64,000 nucleotides of DNA, from assembly GCF_001477655.1 (NCBI RefSeq), contig NZ_CP011266.1:372001-436000 (forward strand), read 5' to 3'. Of this stretch, positions 29,448 through 40,576 are shown one piece after another. The stretch comes from Methanobrevibacter millerae (GTDB taxonomy: Archaea > Methanobacteriota > Methanobacteria > Methanobacteriales > Methanobacteriaceae). Under the pieces are notes generated by a model, which was not told the origin of the DNA, did no database searches, and worked only from the letters and a program-made list of their open reading frames with translations. Position numbers and translations under genes: made by a program. The stretch's first letter is position 1. Each line of letters opens with the position of its first letter.

Positions 29448-30356
29448 ATGGTTAATGGTGGTGAAAATATAAAAAATAGTGATGAAAATTATCGGATGAA
29501 ATATCCGTTGGATGTGCTTAACAAAAGACAATTTGGGTATTTGGGCGATATTGCACATAAATATTATAATTTTCCAGGAAAATATGATTCTCCATGTTTT
29601 AATGAATATCCTAGTGTAAATGGTTCTGCATTAAGAACAGATACATCATATTTTATTGTAATGGAAGATGGTCAAAAAAGAATAATGAATGTTGAGGATG
29701 AAAGTGGCAATGTTAACAAAAAGGTTCTCAGAAAGATTGCAAAATATCGTGATAATATGAGATATACATTTAAATGTCCTGTCAACTCAGCAATAAAAAC
29801 ATCTAAATCATTAGAAAACTGTTTAACATGTTTAAAGTTATCAGAAACAGATATCATTACGCCTATATTCAGACCTATTGTACTGGTTGATTCGAGAGAA
29901 ATTTTAAATAATATTTTGGACAGAATAGAAAATAATTATACCTTCACTGAAATTGAAGCATTTGAAATTTTGGATGTTGTTAGGATGTTTGAAAACAACA
30001 ATCATGAAATGCTTGAAAAAATTTGTTATGCATTGCCTAAAATTAATATAGATTCTACAGAATTTTTTAAACTCGAATTGATTTTTGGGATGAGATGTGT
30101 AATTCATAAATATGCAAAGACAGTTGAGGATATTAAACGATTAGGGGAGGTGATTGGTTTGCCTAATACGAAGACTGCTCGTCAGTTTTTTGAGGATAAA
30201 CTGTTTAATGAGGGTAAGGCTGAAGGTTTTTCGGAAGGTCGTACTGGGGGTCATTTAGAGATGGCTGTTAAGTTTGTTGAGAAATTTGGTGTTGATGCAG
30301 TTGCTGATGCCAGTGGTTTTTCTCGTGATGAAATTTTAAAACATTCTAAGAAATAA
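29448..30356 (+). CDS. Rpn/PD-(D/E)XK-like protein (302 aa), tentative
   Basis: A TTTATATAA box at 29409-29417 places transcription start just before this ATG. Residues 60-90 (ALRTDTSYFIVMEDGQKRI, then NVEDES) resemble the D...(E)xQ core of the Rpn/transposase-like PD-(D/E)XK nucleases. The C-terminus (FNEGKAEGFSEGRTGG, then VDAVADASGFSRDEIL) matches the EGxxEG linker and short helical tail of that group. Rpn-type proteins promote recombination or act in phage defence. The catalytic residues cannot be confirmed by eye. It overlaps the convergent 90-residue gene by 11 bases. Confidence 0.5.
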   Translation: MVNGGENIKNSDENYRMKYPLDVLNKRQFGYLGDIAHKYYNFPGKYDSPCFNEYPSVNGSALRTDTSYFIVMEDGQKRIMNVEDESGNVNKKVLRKIAKYRDNMRYTFKCPVNSAIKTSKSLENCLTCLKLSETDIITPIFRPIVLVDSREILNNILDRIENNYTFTEIEAFEILDVVRMFENNNHEMLEKICYALPKINIDSTEFFKLELIFGMRCVIHKYAKTVEDIKRLGEVIGLPNTKTARQFFEDKLFNEGKAEGFSEGRTGGHLEMAVKFVEKFGVDAVADASGFSRDEILKHSKK

Positions 30357-31761: not shown

Positions 31762-32904
31762 TCATAAGTATGATTCTGTAATTGATGCAACACCCGCACC
31801 AGCATCGTCAATTGCACCTAAACCTTTTAAGGTCATTCCAATAGCTGCAAAGGTTTGTACTAATTCTTTGTATGAGATGCATCCCATGTGTCCTATTCTG
31901 AAGACGTTTCCTTTTAAGTGGTCTTGTCCTCCAGCTAATTCCACACCGTATTTGTCACGGGTTGTTCCTCTAAAGTCAGCATCTGTAACTCCTTCAGGTA
32001 TTTTTACTGCAGTTACGGTTGCAGAGGATACTGCTTCGTCTGCGAATAATTCTAAACCTAATGCTTTAACTGCGGCAACACTGGCTTTAGCTGCTTTGTG
32101 GTGACGTGCAACCCTGTTTTCTAATCCTTCTTCCATAACTATTTTTAAAGCTTCATTCATTGCATAGGTTAATGAAACTGATGGGGTATAAGGAGTTTCA
32201 GGAGGGTTTTTGTCTCCGCTTTTTCTTGCAGCTTTCAAGTCTAAATAGAATGTGTTGGTTTCAACGTTGTCGACTGCTTTCCATGCATCGTCGCTTAAGG
32301 TGATTGCGGCCATTCCAGGAGGTGCAGCTAAACATTTTTGTGATCCGGTTACACAAACGTCAATGCCGAACTTTTCAACATCTACATGGTCTCCTCCAAG
32401 TGATGATACAGTATCTACAATGTATAATGCATCATAGTTTTTCATTACTTTACCGATTTCTTCGATTGGTGCTGCTACACCAGTGGAAGTTTCATTGTGT
32501 ACAACGGTTATTGCTTTAATATCTTCATCTGCATCTAATGCTTCTTCAATTTGTTTTGGTGTTACTGCAGTTCCCCATTTGACTGCTAATTCCTGTGCAT
32601 CAATTCCATGAGTTTGAGCTATTTTCATGAAACGTTCACCGAATTTTCCACCTACAACATTTAATATTTTTTCACCAGGTGCAACGGTATTTGCAACAGC
32701 GGTTTCCATTGCAGCAGTACCGGATCCAGTTAATAAATAAGATTTATTTGGGGTTTGGAAAACTTTACTCATTAATTCTGTAGTTTCAGTCAAGATTTCT
32801 CCATATTTTGCTCCTCTGTGATTTACAACAGCTTTTGACATTGCAGCTAAGACTCTAGGGTCTACTGTTGTTGGACCTGGAAGCATTAATAAAATATCAT
32901 CCAT
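31762..32904 (-). CDS. Class V aminotransferase, alanine-glyoxylate / serine-pyruvate type (380 aa)
   Basis: PLP enzyme of fold type I. LMLPGPTTVDPRVLAAM is the usual N-terminus of this group. HNETSTGVAAPI and VDTVSSLGGDHVD are substrate and PLP contacts, and TGSQKCLAAPPG contains the PLP lysine. It probably interconverts glyoxylate or pyruvate with an amino acid; archaeal members are often annotated as serine-pyruvate aminotransferase. The ATG at 32904 has GGAGGA upstream and aligns with the family; the longer frame to 32940 adds an unrelated leader. Monocistronic. Confidence 0.88.
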   Translation of the reverse strand: MDDILLMLPGPTTVDPRVLAAMSKAVVNHRGAKYGEILTETTELMSKVFQTPNKSYLLTGSGTAAMETAVANTVAPGEKILNVVGGKFGERFMKIAQTHGIDAQELAVKWGTAVTPKQIEEALDADEDIKAITVVHNETSTGVAAPIEEIGKVMKNYDALYIVDTVSSLGGDHVDVEKFGIDVCVTGSQKCLAAPPGMAAITLSDDAWKAVDNVETNTFYLDLKAARKSGDKNPPETPYTPSVSLTYAMNEALKIVMEEGLENRVARHHKAAKASVAAVKALGLELFADEAVSSATVTAVKIPEGVTDADFRGTTRDKYGVELAGGQDHLKGNVFRIGHMGCISYKELVQTFAAIGMTLKGLGAIDDAGAGVASITESYL

Positions 32905-33069
32905 TGATTTTCCTCCATTAAACAAAAAAAGATTTAGCATTTCTAAATCTAATTAAATATTTGATTTTTATACTTTTTAAATATTTAGTTGGCAATTTAA
33001 GTTCCGTTTAGATTGTACATTTTTGTGCTAATATTACTTTAAATAATATATTATACTATATAATTAGTT

Positions 33070-33738
33070 ATGGAGTTCAGCGGTGAAGAATTAACATTTA
33101 AACGCATTTTTAATTATATTTTTGGTTTGTTTTTAATAACATTGGGAGTTGCCTTTTCAATCAAGTCTGATTTGGGCTCAGCTCCTGTAAGTTCGATACC
33201 TTATGCGATGAACCTGATTTGGGCAATTGAAATTGGTGTTGCAACATTTATATTTCATGCCTTTCTGGTAGCTATTGAACTTTTGCTTTTAAGGAGAGAT
33301 TTTAAGCCAAAACATTTTCTGCAGGTGTTTGTGGGTGTATTGTTTGGTGCATTTACAAGCTTTTCAGTCTCATTGATGTATTTCATACCTTCTGCAGATT
33401 CACTTTGGGTAGCATTGATTATGAGTTTGCTCTCAATATTTTTCATTGCTTTAGGATTGTTTTTCTATGTTCCAACCAATATTGTCCCTCTATCTGTTGA
33501 AGGTGTTACGCAGGCAATTGCAATTGTAACAAAAAGACCATTTTCATTAATCAAGATATGCTTTGATGTAACAATTGTTGCCTCCGCTTTGATTTTGAGC
33601 TATGTATTTCTTGGAAACTTCGGTAGCGTCGGTATCGGAACGATTCTTGGAGCGCTCTTCATTGGACCAACGGTCAAATTAATCCATAAAATAAATCATA
33701 TAATAACAGGCGAGCACGTTAATCTAAAGAAGATGTAA
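33070..33738 (+). CDS. YczE-like integral membrane protein, copy 1 (222 aa)
   Basis: Five or six membrane helices. Family features are GLFLITLGVAFSIKSDLGSA (first helix and following loop), LLLRRDFKPKHFLQ, FFYVPTNIVPLSVEG and GSVGIGTILGALFIGP. These match the YczE/YitT-like membrane family. In Bacillus, yczE lies next to sfp and supports lipopeptide and polyketide production by an unknown mechanism. Here the gene ends two bases from a convergent Sfp-type transferase, and a paralogue lies on the other side. A TATA stretch (TATACTATATAATT) just upstream suggests a very short leader. Confidence 0.82.
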   Translation: MEFSGEELTFKRIFNYIFGLFLITLGVAFSIKSDLGSAPVSSIPYAMNLIWAIEIGVATFIFHAFLVAIELLLLRRDFKPKHFLQVFVGVLFGAFTSFSVSLMYFIPSADSLWVALIMSLLSIFFIALGLFFYVPTNIVPLSVEGVTQAIAIVTKRPFSLIKICFDVTIVASALILSYVFLGNFGSVGIGTILGALFIGPTVKLIHKINHIITGEHVNLKKM

Positions 33739-33740
33739 AA

Positions 33741-34382
33741 TCAGTATAAGTCCTCCAGTGAATATTCATTCACCTCTTTTGTTTTGAAGTGGCCTGCAGT
33801 GGCTAGCTTGTACCTGCCGACATCAAAGAGGTTAAACTTGATGTTGTGGATATCATTTTTAAGTCGGATTTCACTGTCAATCACTATTTCAAAGTCACTT
33901 AATTCCAAGCGAAATCCCAAACCACAATATTTCATATAGCTTTCCTTTAAAACCCAATATTTAAAAAATTCATTTGAGGGATTTTTTGACCTTTTGATGT
34001 TTTCATATTCGCTGTTGAAGAAATAATTTTTGGCTATGTTTAAATCAATTTGGGGGTCATTGAATTCGATATCGCAACCTATTTCTGCATCGGATACTGC
34101 ACATGAAACCATATTTTTTGAATGGCTTATATTAAAATAAATATTTTCATAGTTTGAGATGTATGTTTTGCCGAATTTGTGGGTTTCAAAATTAGGATTC
34201 ACTATACCTTCTTCAGCAAGCATTTTTTCAGCTAAAAGATAAGCTCCGCAGCTGAGCCTTTTGTCCTTGTTAAATCTATAAAAGTCAATTTTTTCCTTTC
34301 TTTTTGCAGAAACCAATGGATATGCCTTATTCAGGTCAAGGTTTTCTACATTACAATAAGCTATTTTAATCATGTCTGTCAT
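33741..34382 (-). CDS. Sfp-type 4'-phosphopantetheinyl transferase
   Basis: Transfers the phosphopantetheine arm of CoA to a serine on carrier proteins. Motifs: IYFNISHSKNMVSCAVSD, then IGCDIEF (magnesium site) and YWVLKESYMKYCGLGF (WxxKES). Length (213 residues) fits the Sfp group. The start is uncertain: the frame is open to 34433, but a TATA box (minus-strand TTTATATAC near 34400-34408) lies inside that extension. ATG 34382 or 34373 is therefore more likely, possibly leaderless. No carrier protein or NRPS is encoded in the window, so the partner must be elsewhere. Flanked by two YczE-like genes. Confidence 0.85.
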   Translation of the reverse strand: MTDMIKIAYCNVENLDLNKAYPLVSAKRKEKIDFYRFNKDKRLSCGAYLLAEKMLAEEGIVNPNFETHKFGKTYISNYENIYFNISHSKNMVSCAVSDAEIGCDIEFNDPQIDLNIAKNYFFNSEYENIKRSKNPSNEFFKYWVLKESYMKYCGLGFRLELSDFEIVIDSEIRLKNDIHNIKFNLFDVGRYKLATAGHFKTKEVNEYSLEDLY

Positions 34383-34507
34383 TATTTTGTTTAAATAAGT
34401 ATATAAATTTATTTTTTTAATCTTTTTATTCAATATAATTTCTTTAAAACATTATTTGGTTTAATTATGAATATATTTAAATATTTTAATGGATATATAG
34501 TTATTAG

Positions 34508-35155
34508 ATGATTAAGAGAATTTGTTTTTTTGTTTTAGGATTATTTATAATGGCTTTTGGTGTTGCATTTTCCATAAAATCAACATTTGGAACAACTCCT
34601 ATAAGTTCCATCGCTTATTCTCTCACATTATGTGCTAATATTGATATTGGAATTACTACTGTAATTTTTAATGCTGCTTTAGTTTTTATTCAGATGATAA
34701 TTTTAAGGTCTGAATTTAAGCCAAAACGATTACTGCAGTTTATTAATTGTTTTTTATTTGGATATTTCACTGATTTAACTTTATACATTGTGTATTCACT
34801 AAATATTCCTGATAATATAATAATAAATTTAATTTTGATTTTTGTCAGTATATTTATGATAGCTTTGGGAATATTTATCTATATGCCTGCCAATATTGCG
34901 CCTTTGCCTGGTGAGGGTTGTGTTGAATCTGTAGCTATTGTAACAAATTGGAGATTTTCTTCAATTAAAATAGCTTTTGATACTATTATGGTGGTTATTT
35001 CAGTACTTATGTGCTATTTCTTTTATACAACCCCTTGGGGAAGTGTAAATATTGGAACCATTATTTCTGCAGTTTTGGTTGGCTATACTTTAAGACAAAT
35101 TGCAAAATTATATAATCATATTGCAGGTAAAGATATTAATATTGTTAACAAATGA
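34508..35155 (+). CDS. YczE-like integral membrane protein, copy 2 (215 aa)
   Basis: Clear paralogue of the gene at 33070: FVLGLFIMAFGVAFSIKSTF, LRSEFKPKRLLQF, IYMPANIAPLPGEG and GSVNIGTIISAVLVG line up along the whole length. Predicted multi-pass membrane protein. It is divergent from the phosphopantetheinyl transferase and runs into mptE with a 9-base gap, so it may be co-transcribed with mptE, although a functional link to methanopterin synthesis is not obvious. Confidence 0.82.
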   Translation: MIKRICFFVLGLFIMAFGVAFSIKSTFGTTPISSIAYSLTLCANIDIGITTVIFNAALVFIQMIILRSEFKPKRLLQFINCFLFGYFTDLTLYIVYSLNIPDNIIINLILIFVSIFMIALGIFIYMPANIAPLPGEGCVESVAIVTNWRFSSIKIAFDTIMVVISVLMCYFFYTTPWGSVNIGTIISAVLVGYTLRQIAKLYNHIAGKDINIVNK

Positions 35156-35164
35156 GGTTTTAAC

Positions 35165-35884
35165 ATGGAATTTGGTGAGTGGAATATATATTATAAAGAA
35201 ATTCTTGATGATTTTGGATTTTCCCGTGAAGATGATGAAAAATGCGGCCAATTATTGGATGAAATTTTGGCTGAAGAGGGATGTTTGACACTTGAAGATT
35301 TAAGTAAAATTGTTGGATTTTCAGACAAGTTCATTGTCTTTGGTGCCGGACCGTCAGTTAAAGATCATATCAAATTATTAAAAGAAAAATATGATTTGAA
35401 GGATTATGTTCTTGTTGCTGCTGATGGTGCTACAACTGCAATGATTGAAGAAAAACTTGCACCGGATATAGTTGTAACTGATTTGGATGGTAATCTTGAT
35501 GATATTTTGATTGCTAACTTGAAGGGGGCTAATATCGTTGTGCATGCTCATGGTGATAATGCAGATAAAATTGTTAATGTTACTTCCTTTTTCACTAATG
35601 TGCTGGGAACCACTCAGGCTCAGCCAGTAGGTAATGTATACAACTTTGGAGGATTCACTGATGGTGATAGGGCAATATTTTTGGCTGTGGCATTGAATGC
35701 ATCTGAAATTACTCTTGCAGGAATGGATTTTGGGGATATTGTAACCAAATACTCAAGACCTAATTTGCCAACAGTCACAGGACCTGCTGATGAAATTAAA
35801 CGTAAAAAACTGCAATATGCAGAAAAATTAACAAAATGGATAATTGAAAATGAAAATGTTGACATAATCAACTTAAAAGAATAA
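35165..35884 (+). CDS. mptE: 6-hydroxymethyl-7,8-dihydropterin pyrophosphokinase MptE
   Basis: Archaeal DUF115 enzyme that pyrophosphorylates 6-hydroxymethyl-7,8-dihydropterin on the way to tetrahydromethanopterin, the C1 carrier of methanogenesis. Seen here: FIVFGAGPSVKDHI, LVAADGATTAMIEEKLAPDI, VTDLDGNLDDI, VVHAHGDNADKI and FGGFTDGDRAIFLAVAL, all characteristic of the archaeal family. It replaces bacterial FolK. The ribosome binding site GAGG lies just upstream, at the end of the preceding gene. Length (239) is normal. Confidence 0.9.
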   Translation: MEFGEWNIYYKEILDDFGFSREDDEKCGQLLDEILAEEGCLTLEDLSKIVGFSDKFIVFGAGPSVKDHIKLLKEKYDLKDYVLVAADGATTAMIEEKLAPDIVVTDLDGNLDDILIANLKGANIVVHAHGDNADKIVNVTSFFTNVLGTTQAQPVGNVYNFGGFTDGDRAIFLAVALNASEITLAGMDFGDIVTKYSRPNLPTVTGPADEIKRKKLQYAEKLTKWIIENENVDIINLKE

Positions 35885-38801: not shown

Positions 38802-40576
38802 CAACCCTGTTAATTTAAGAAACTCAATATTGAATTTTTAATTATATTGTCTTATTTCTTTATTTTTTCTATTTATAATTTTTTATTTGATGTTTAATTG
38901 CGTTAACATATTTATTTTTTATATTAAGACCATATTATTAATTTTTTATTTTTTTCTTATTTTCCATTTTCTGGTAATTTTTCCATGTATATTCTTTTAA
39001 TTTACTTTAAATTAAGTGTAATTATTCTAATAGTTTAAATGATTATTTTAAGTATTTTATATCTAATTTTAAGTATTTTTAATAGTTAATATTAAATATT
39101 ATTAAATTATATTTTTATATAGAGTTATTCAATATTTTTTGTTTTGAATTTCAGGATTTGGGGGCTGTTTTTGATGATTAATTTCATGGAATATTGTGAT
39201 GAAACTTGGGTAAACTTAAATAAATATGTTGATCGAAAATATATAATTGATGATGGAAAAAATCATTTTGTTCGAAATCGAAAAACTAATCTGGAAAGTA
39301 TAATCAAGTATCCTTTCTATGATTGTGGCCGAACAACTGCAATTGAAGCTATAAATTTTATTAGAAAAGAAAAAAAGGATAAAAATATGACATTAAGCAA
39401 ATCTAACATTTCTCAAAGAAGAAAATTACTCGACCATGTTTGTTATGTGGATATGAATGAAGACTTTATTGATGGAATTTACAACGATTCAGAACGACCT
39501 GGCCTTTATGGGGGATATTCAATACTTGCAGGCGATACTAGCATTTGCGATGCGCCAAATATTGGATACACAGAAAAACAACTAAAAGAATTAAATAATC
39601 CACATTTCAATAGATTGCGAAAGGAATTAATAAGATTTAGAGCATCCTGCATTGCAGATACACAAACAGATTTCATATTAACGGCCACAATAACTAACAG
39701 CAAAAAAATAGGGGAAGTAGAACTCGCAATGCAAGATTTAGACAACTTAAACCAAAGAATCGACATGACCAACACCATCACAACCTACGACAGAGGATAC
39801 GACGCCCTTGAACTAATGCTCAAACATAAGAGCATAAATTCATATTTTCTAATAAGATTAAAAGCAGATGACTTTATAAACGAACGAAAATATATGAAAA
39901 CAAATGATGAAATAATAAACATCACCATAAATAGAATACGAACACAAAACTTTCACGATGAAGAATTAAAGAAACAAGCACGAGAAAAAAGAAGCACAGA
40001 AATAAGAATAACAGAAATAGAACTAACAACTAAAACAGGAAAAAAATACACAGAAATACTAGCAAGCAATTTACCCTTCGATAAATTCACTACCTCCGAT
40101 TTAAAAGAATTATATAACAAAAGATGGAAAATAGAAACCAATTTCGACAGATTAAAAAACATAATACACATAGAAAACTTCAGCGGATACAACGAAGAAA
40201 TCATACAACAAGACTTCTACGCCAACATATTCATGTTTAATTATCTCATGGCAATGAAACTCGATGCAGACCAAAAAATACAAGAAAAACAAAAAAATAA
40301 AAACCTAAAACACGAATATAAAACAAATCTCAATGTCTTATTCGGATTAATTAAATTAGACATGCCAGACTTATTATCGGATGACCCTAAGGAAAGAGAA
40401 AATGCTGTAAAACGAATATTGAATACCGCACAATCGAACTTAGTTGAAAAAAATAGAGTAAATGATAGGAATCCTGACAGAACAGCCAAAGATCCAAATA
40501 ACAAATTCCCTCCAACTCAAAGAAGAGGTGAATAAAAAAATTAATTTCACAAAAATTTCTTAAATTAACAGGGTTG
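38802..40576 (+). mobile_element. Complete IS4-family insertion sequence
   Basis: Perfect 21-bp inverted ends (38802-38822 and 40556-40576), beginning CAACCCTGTTAA. The flanks carry a 9-bp direct duplication ATATTGAAA at 38793-38801 and 40577-40585, as expected for IS4-type transposition. The element is 1775 bp with one transposase gene. Because ends and target duplication are perfect, insertion is recent and the element may be active. About 350 bases at its left end are AT-rich without a gene. The host gap 38639-38801 shows nothing else. Confidence 0.93.
39174..40535 (+). CDS. IS4-family DDE transposase (453 aa)
   Basis: DDE enzyme with first Asp in ILAGDTSICD, second in TYDRGYDALEL, and the Glu in the signature YNKRWKIETNFDRLK, which fits the YxxRWxIExxFxxLK pattern of IS4-type enzymes. 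The ATG at 39174 is chosen for the GGGGG stretch 10 bases upstream; 39144 and 39186 are alternatives. No frameshift or stop, so the protein looks functional. The last 60 residues are basic and Asn-rich. Confidence 0.9.
   Translation: MINFMEYCDETWVNLNKYVDRKYIIDDGKNHFVRNRKTNLESIIKYPFYDCGRTTAIEAINFIRKEKKDKNMTLSKSNISQRRKLLDHVCYVDMNEDFIDGIYNDSERPGLYGGYSILAGDTSICDAPNIGYTEKQLKELNNPHFNRLRKELIRFRASCIADTQTDFILTATITNSKKIGEVELAMQDLDNLNQRIDMTNTITTYDRGYDALELMLKHKSINSYFLIRLKADDFINERKYMKTNDEIINITINRIRTQNFHDEELKKQAREKRSTEIRITEIELTTKTGKKYTEILASNLPFDKFTTSDLKELYNKRWKIETNFDRLKNIIHIENFSGYNEEIIQQDFYANIFMFNYLMAMKLDADQKIQEKQKNKNLKHEYKTNLNVLFGLIKLDMPDLLSDDPKERENAVKRILNTAQSNLVEKNRVNDRNPDRTAKDPNNKFPPTQRRGE

What the first reader, a model, noticed from the sequence alone, without database searches (positions are those of the whole stretch)
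33070..35155. Sfp-type phosphopantetheinyl transferase flanked by two YczE-like paralogues
In Bacillus, yczE lies beside sfp and is needed for some peptide/polyketide products by an unknown mechanism. Here the same association occurs in an archaeon, with YczE duplicated on both sides. Archaea lack a standard fatty-acid carrier protein pathway, so the transferase must serve a special carrier, probably an NRPS elsewhere in the genome. The YczE proteins may transport or support maturation of that product.
Basis: partly seen in the sequence, partly recalled or inferred. Interest (0 to 1): 0.62.

Follow-up and report, generated by a model that had tools for sequence, protein, structure and literature searches.

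The report
Carrier-activating gene inserted between membrane genes
In this gut methanogen, the enzyme that switches on its peptide-making machines sits between two related membrane-protein genes, apparently because it was inserted there recently rather than because the three genes work together, so the arrangement is essentially ordinary.

Summary
The PPTase keeps its catalytic motifs and is the only one in the genome. Its carriers exist: two NRPS genes about 450-470 kb away with four carrier domains.

The proposed YczE-Sfp functional unit does not hold. In relatives the two YczE genes form an old tandem pair (spacer 10-41 bp) inside a conserved block, whether or not the genome has any PPTase or carrier. 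Close relatives have the uninterrupted pair, and their spacer survives beside the second YczE gene here, so about 736 bp carrying the PPTase was inserted just after the first gene's stop codon. Another relative has 4.2 kb of unrelated genes at that point. Elsewhere the PPTase usually closes a STAS/kinase/phosphatase operon, often beside an NRPS. PPTase presence tracks carrier domains, not YczE. Two further linkages were seen (one sibling, one Methanosphaera), so a weak functional tie is not fully excluded.

Verdict: known parts, accidental neighbours.

The parts
33070..33738 (+). YczE-A: DUF6198/YczE-superfamily membrane protein, first gene of an ancestral tandem pair
   Evidence: Pfam PF19700 55.5 bits; orthologues at the same syntenic place in relatives; own clade
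33741..34433 (-). Sfp-type PPTase, only one in the genome; probable start at 34373 or 34382
   Evidence: PF01648 52.9 bits; Sfp 1QR0 E 8.8e-16 with GxDxE and WxxKE motifs; single copy
33739..34474 (.). Inferred insert of about 736 bp carrying the PPTase and its own promoter
   Evidence: Relatives have a 10-41 bp spacer here; native spacer retained at 34475-34507, scoring above all 5000 shuffles
34394..34405 (-). TATA-like box (TTTATATA) upstream of the PPTase, within the insert (approximate position)
   Evidence: Sequence; its role is inference
34475..34507 (.). Retained native YczE-A/YczE-B spacer
   Evidence: Alignment to G051, G053 and G057
34508..35155 (+). YczE-B: second DUF6198 membrane protein; model with eight helices, two of them short
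   Evidence: PF19700 48.4 bits; AlphaFold pLDDT 87.3; own clade
31762..32940 (-). Class-V aminotransferase, conserved divergent neighbour of the YczE genes
   Evidence: PF00266; found in 61 of 67 genus genomes, syntenic in those with enough flank
35165..35884 (+). MptE-like 6-hydroxymethylpterin diphosphokinase, conserved downstream neighbour
   Evidence: PF01973 98.5 bits; synteny

Best explanation
A functional Sfp-type PPTase, which transfers 4'-phosphopantetheine from CoA to the carrier domains of the genome's two distant NRPSs, was inserted together with its own promoter between two co-oriented YczE/DUF6198 membrane-protein genes. Those genes are an older tandem pair with a separate, PPTase-independent role, most likely small-molecule transport. 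Shown: single PPTase, NRPS carriers, conserved pair, empty site in relatives, residual spacer. Inferred: PPTase activity, YczE transport, and that the adjacency has no functional meaning.
For: Same block ALS-DUF2953-YtfJ-aminotransferase-YczA-YczB-MptE-CDC6-archease-RtcB in the genus, PPTase elsewhere. Of 48 relatives with the interval fully covered, 20 have both genes (one of them with extra copies), 16 only B, 5 only A, 2 two A-type copies and 5 none; none of the 48 has a PPTase in it. The near relatives G051/G053 (aminotransferase 96% identical) have the intact pair with a 35-bp spacer, and the window retains this spacer next to YczE-B. G057 has 4.2 kb of Ig-like lipoprotein-type genes at the same point. 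In relatives the PPTase is usually the last gene of a STAS-HATPase-SpoIIE operon, often divergent from a C-A-T-C-A-T-R NRPS plus MATE exporter. PPTase vs PP-binding OR 59, p=3e-20; PPTase vs YczE in the genus p=0.59; 13 genus genomes have YczE with neither. 1 of 49 other YczE-family loci is near a PPTase.
Against: Linkage also occurs in G080 (YczA-PPTase-SpoIIE; YczA there has an in-frame TAG) and in Methanosphaera G116 (PPTase-STAS-YczE, same strand). By rough estimate chance would give well under one immediate adjacency in about 67 genomes holding both families, so three (possibly two independent) is a small excess. The PPTases of G000, G087, G080 and G050 form one clade (0.97), so G000 and G080 may share one event. 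Fisher tests ignore shared ancestry.
Confidence: 0.85

Rival explanations
1. YczE-PPTase-YczE is a functional module: the membrane proteins help mature or export the NRPS product, as proposed for Bacillus yczE/sfp.
For: Bacillus YczE and Sfp both act post-transcriptionally on bacillomycin D synthesis (statement in PMC6457013); linkage also in G080 and G116.
Against: YczE genes conserved in genomes without PPTase or carriers; PPTase usually elsewhere; MATE-family exporter genes lie beside the NRPS; only superfamily similarity to YczE; 1 of 49 wider loci linked; antisense orientation.
Confidence: 0.08
2. The insertion matters through gene expression: separation from the SpoIIE/HATPase/STAS regulators freed the PPTase from control, and its convergent transcript dampens YczE-A.
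For: The STAS gene remains beside the NRPS at G000 C1 about 851.3 kb while the PPTase is here; stops are 2 bp apart; the insert has its own TATA-like box.
Against: No expression data; compatible with the best explanation rather than exclusive.
Confidence: 0.07

Closest known systems
Methanobrevibacter ruminantium M1 NRPS and PPTase system (mru_0068, mru_0351, mru_0513-0516; PMC2812497)
   Same: Sfp-type PPTase away from the NRPS genes, MATE exporters beside the NRPS genes
   Different: There the PPTase keeps its anti-sigma-factor-like regulators and phosphatase as neighbours; here it stands alone between YczE genes
Bacillus sfp and yczE
   Same: Sfp-family PPTase close to a DUF161/COG2364-type membrane protein
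   Different: Here the neighbours are DUF6198 proteins far below the YczE equivalog cut-off, antisense to the PPTase, and older than the linkage
YczR(MocR)-linked YczE genes (PMC4944035)
   Same: YczE-type gene divergent from a fold-type-I PLP protein (here a class-V aminotransferase)
   Different: No wHTH regulator domain found in the archaeal neighbour

Membership tests
Sfp-type (group II) PPTase | ACPS fold with GxDxE and WxxKE metal/catalytic motifs | tested here: met
   PF01648 above cut-off; aligned to Sfp; D121, E123, W160, K163, E164 at least 95% conserved in 55 homologues
Sfp-type (group II) PPTase | Carrier substrates in the same genome | tested here: met
   Four PP-binding domains in two NRPSs
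Sfp-type (group II) PPTase | Phosphopantetheinylation activity | not testable with these tools
   Needs an enzyme assay
DUF6198 (PF19700) | Match above the curated cut-off | tested here: met
   55.5 and 48.4 bits against 27
YczE equivalog (NF052291) | Score at or above 205 bits | tested here: not met
   54 and 60 bits
Bacillus-type yczE-sfp functional unit | Linkage conserved between the two families | tested here: not met
   PPTase absent from the interval in all 48 fully covered relatives; 1 of 49 wider loci
Bacillus-type yczE-sfp functional unit | YczE needed for the NRPS product | not testable with these tools
   Needs a deletion strain

The most novel reading that the evidence does not exclude
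YczE-family membrane proteins and PPTases are recurrently brought together (Bacillus, this lineage, Methanosphaera) because YczE promotes carrier-dependent peptide maturation or export, and the insertion here is one selected instance of that convergence.
Probability: 0.06. Interest if true: 0.55.

Novelty: new member of a known kind. Interest (0 to 1): 0.14.

Why it matters
It warns against reading gene neighbourhood as function: the linkage that suggested an archaeal YczE-Sfp unit is explained by an insertion into an older gene pair. It also confirms that the Methanobrevibacter PPTase tracks NRPS carriers, and it defines the YczE pair as a separate, still uncharacterised membrane system.

Tried and rejected
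The IQ-TREE script ran into the time limit, so FastTree was used. A broad YczE alignment had no searchable stretch, so a tighter one was used; the 49 loci therefore sample mainly the third YczE subfamily of this family of archaea plus some bacteria. The Foldseek PDB search of the YczE-B model gave nothing significant (best E 0.78), and no PDB sequence match was found. The paper on Bacillus YczE (PMC2074971) is not held. Phage and plasmid searches showed only distant relatives. Considered and rejected: YczE duplicated around sfp as one unit, because the two YczE clades predate the insertion.

Full report
Observation. The window lies at C1:372001-436000 of a single-contig 2.54-Mb genome of the genus Methanobrevibacter (genus inferred from named relatives). 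The three genes are as described. YczE-A and YczE-B match DUF6198 above cut-off but the YczE equivalog model only at 54-60 of a required 205 bits. The antisense gene is a PPTase close to Sfp with conserved catalytic motifs. Homologues begin at its residue 21, so the start is probably 34373 or 34382, just downstream of a TTTATATA box (the promoter reading is inference).

What the PPTase serves. It is the only PPTase in the genome. There are four PP-binding domains in two NRPS genes: one with the order C-A-T-C-A-T-reductase, followed by a MATE exporter, and one of 2400 aa with several condensation matches, one adenylation and two carrier domains. This matches the published M. ruminantium system (PMC2812497). 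In 139 genomes of the family, PPTase and carrier domains co-occur (74 both, 48 neither, 17 discordant; OR 59, p=3e-20). The test does not correct for shared ancestry.

What the YczE pair is. In the genus, the interval between a class-V aminotransferase and an MptE-like gene holds the YczE genes. Of 48 relatives with the interval complete, 20 have both genes (one of these with extra copies), 16 only B, 5 only A, 2 two A-type copies and 5 none; none has a PPTase there. In intact pairs the spacer is 10-41 bp. The A and B types form separate old clades. Thirteen genus genomes have YczE-family genes but neither PPTase nor carrier domain, and YczE and PPTase presence are unrelated in the genus (p=0.59). 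The YczE-B model has eight helices, two of them short (pLDDT 87), and no significant PDB fold match. A transporter role is inference; PMC4944035 suggested metabolite transport for YczE proteins.

How the linkage arose. The near relatives G051 and G053 have the pair with a 35-bp spacer. The window keeps that spacer directly before YczE-B (0 of 5000 shuffles score as high; alignment), while the PPTase stop codon lies 2 bp after the YczE-A stop. The simplest reading is an insertion of about 736 bp (33739-34474). G057 carries 4.2 kb of Ig-like lipoprotein-type genes at the same point with the same spacer retained, so this is a permissive site. In relatives the PPTase usually ends a STAS-HATPase-SpoIIE operon, often divergent from the dimodular NRPS. 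In this genome the STAS gene is still beside the NRPS, so the PPTase has left its partners.

Remaining doubt. G080 has YczA-PPTase-SpoIIE at the equivalent place, and its PPTase is in the same clade as this one. YczA itself shows signs of recombination, since YczA and locus trees differ. Whether G000 and G080 share one insertion is unresolved. Methanosphaera G116 (= L199) has PPTase-STAS-YczE in one direction with a different YczE type. Among the 49 YczE-family loci of the wider survey, that is the only one with a PPTase within 7 kb. A weak tie between the families is therefore unlikely but not excluded.

Verdict. The YczE-Sfp functional unit is not supported; the adjacency is best explained by a recent insertion.

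Noticed in passing
L101:812-3383 and equivalents (L100, L102, L103, L162, L168): A STAS / HATPase / SpoIIE-phosphatase partner-switching cassette is conserved upstream of the PPTase in many Methanobrevibacter genomes. Such cassettes usually control sigma factors, which archaea lack, so its target is unknown.
   Followed up: partly
L123:2940-7190 (G057): A 4.2-kb block of Ig-like lipoprotein-type genes is inserted between YczA and YczB at the same point as the PPTase here, suggesting an insertion hot spot.
   Followed up: partly
L107:5601-13487: The dimodular NRPS ends in a reductase domain rather than a thioesterase, which predicts a peptide aldehyde or a pyrazinone-like product.
   Followed up: no
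L101 and L194: G051 and G054 share almost identical regulator genes beside the NRPS (STAS 99%, HATPase 98%, SpoIIE 98%) although their housekeeping loci differ more, suggesting recent transfer of the cluster.
   Followed up: no
window 29448-30356; L079, L082, L083, L086: ORF resembling an Rpn/PD-(D/E)XK-type protein (not tested by profile); relatives (28-31% identity) sit in the YczB-MptE gap of other genomes.
   Followed up: no
L076, L077 (G037, G041): Extra YczE copies in tandem at this locus (one appears split by a frameshift in G041) in genomes without any PPTase.
   Followed up: no
window 39144-40535: Looks like an IS4-type DDE transposase gene near the locus (read from sequence, not tested).
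   Followed up: no
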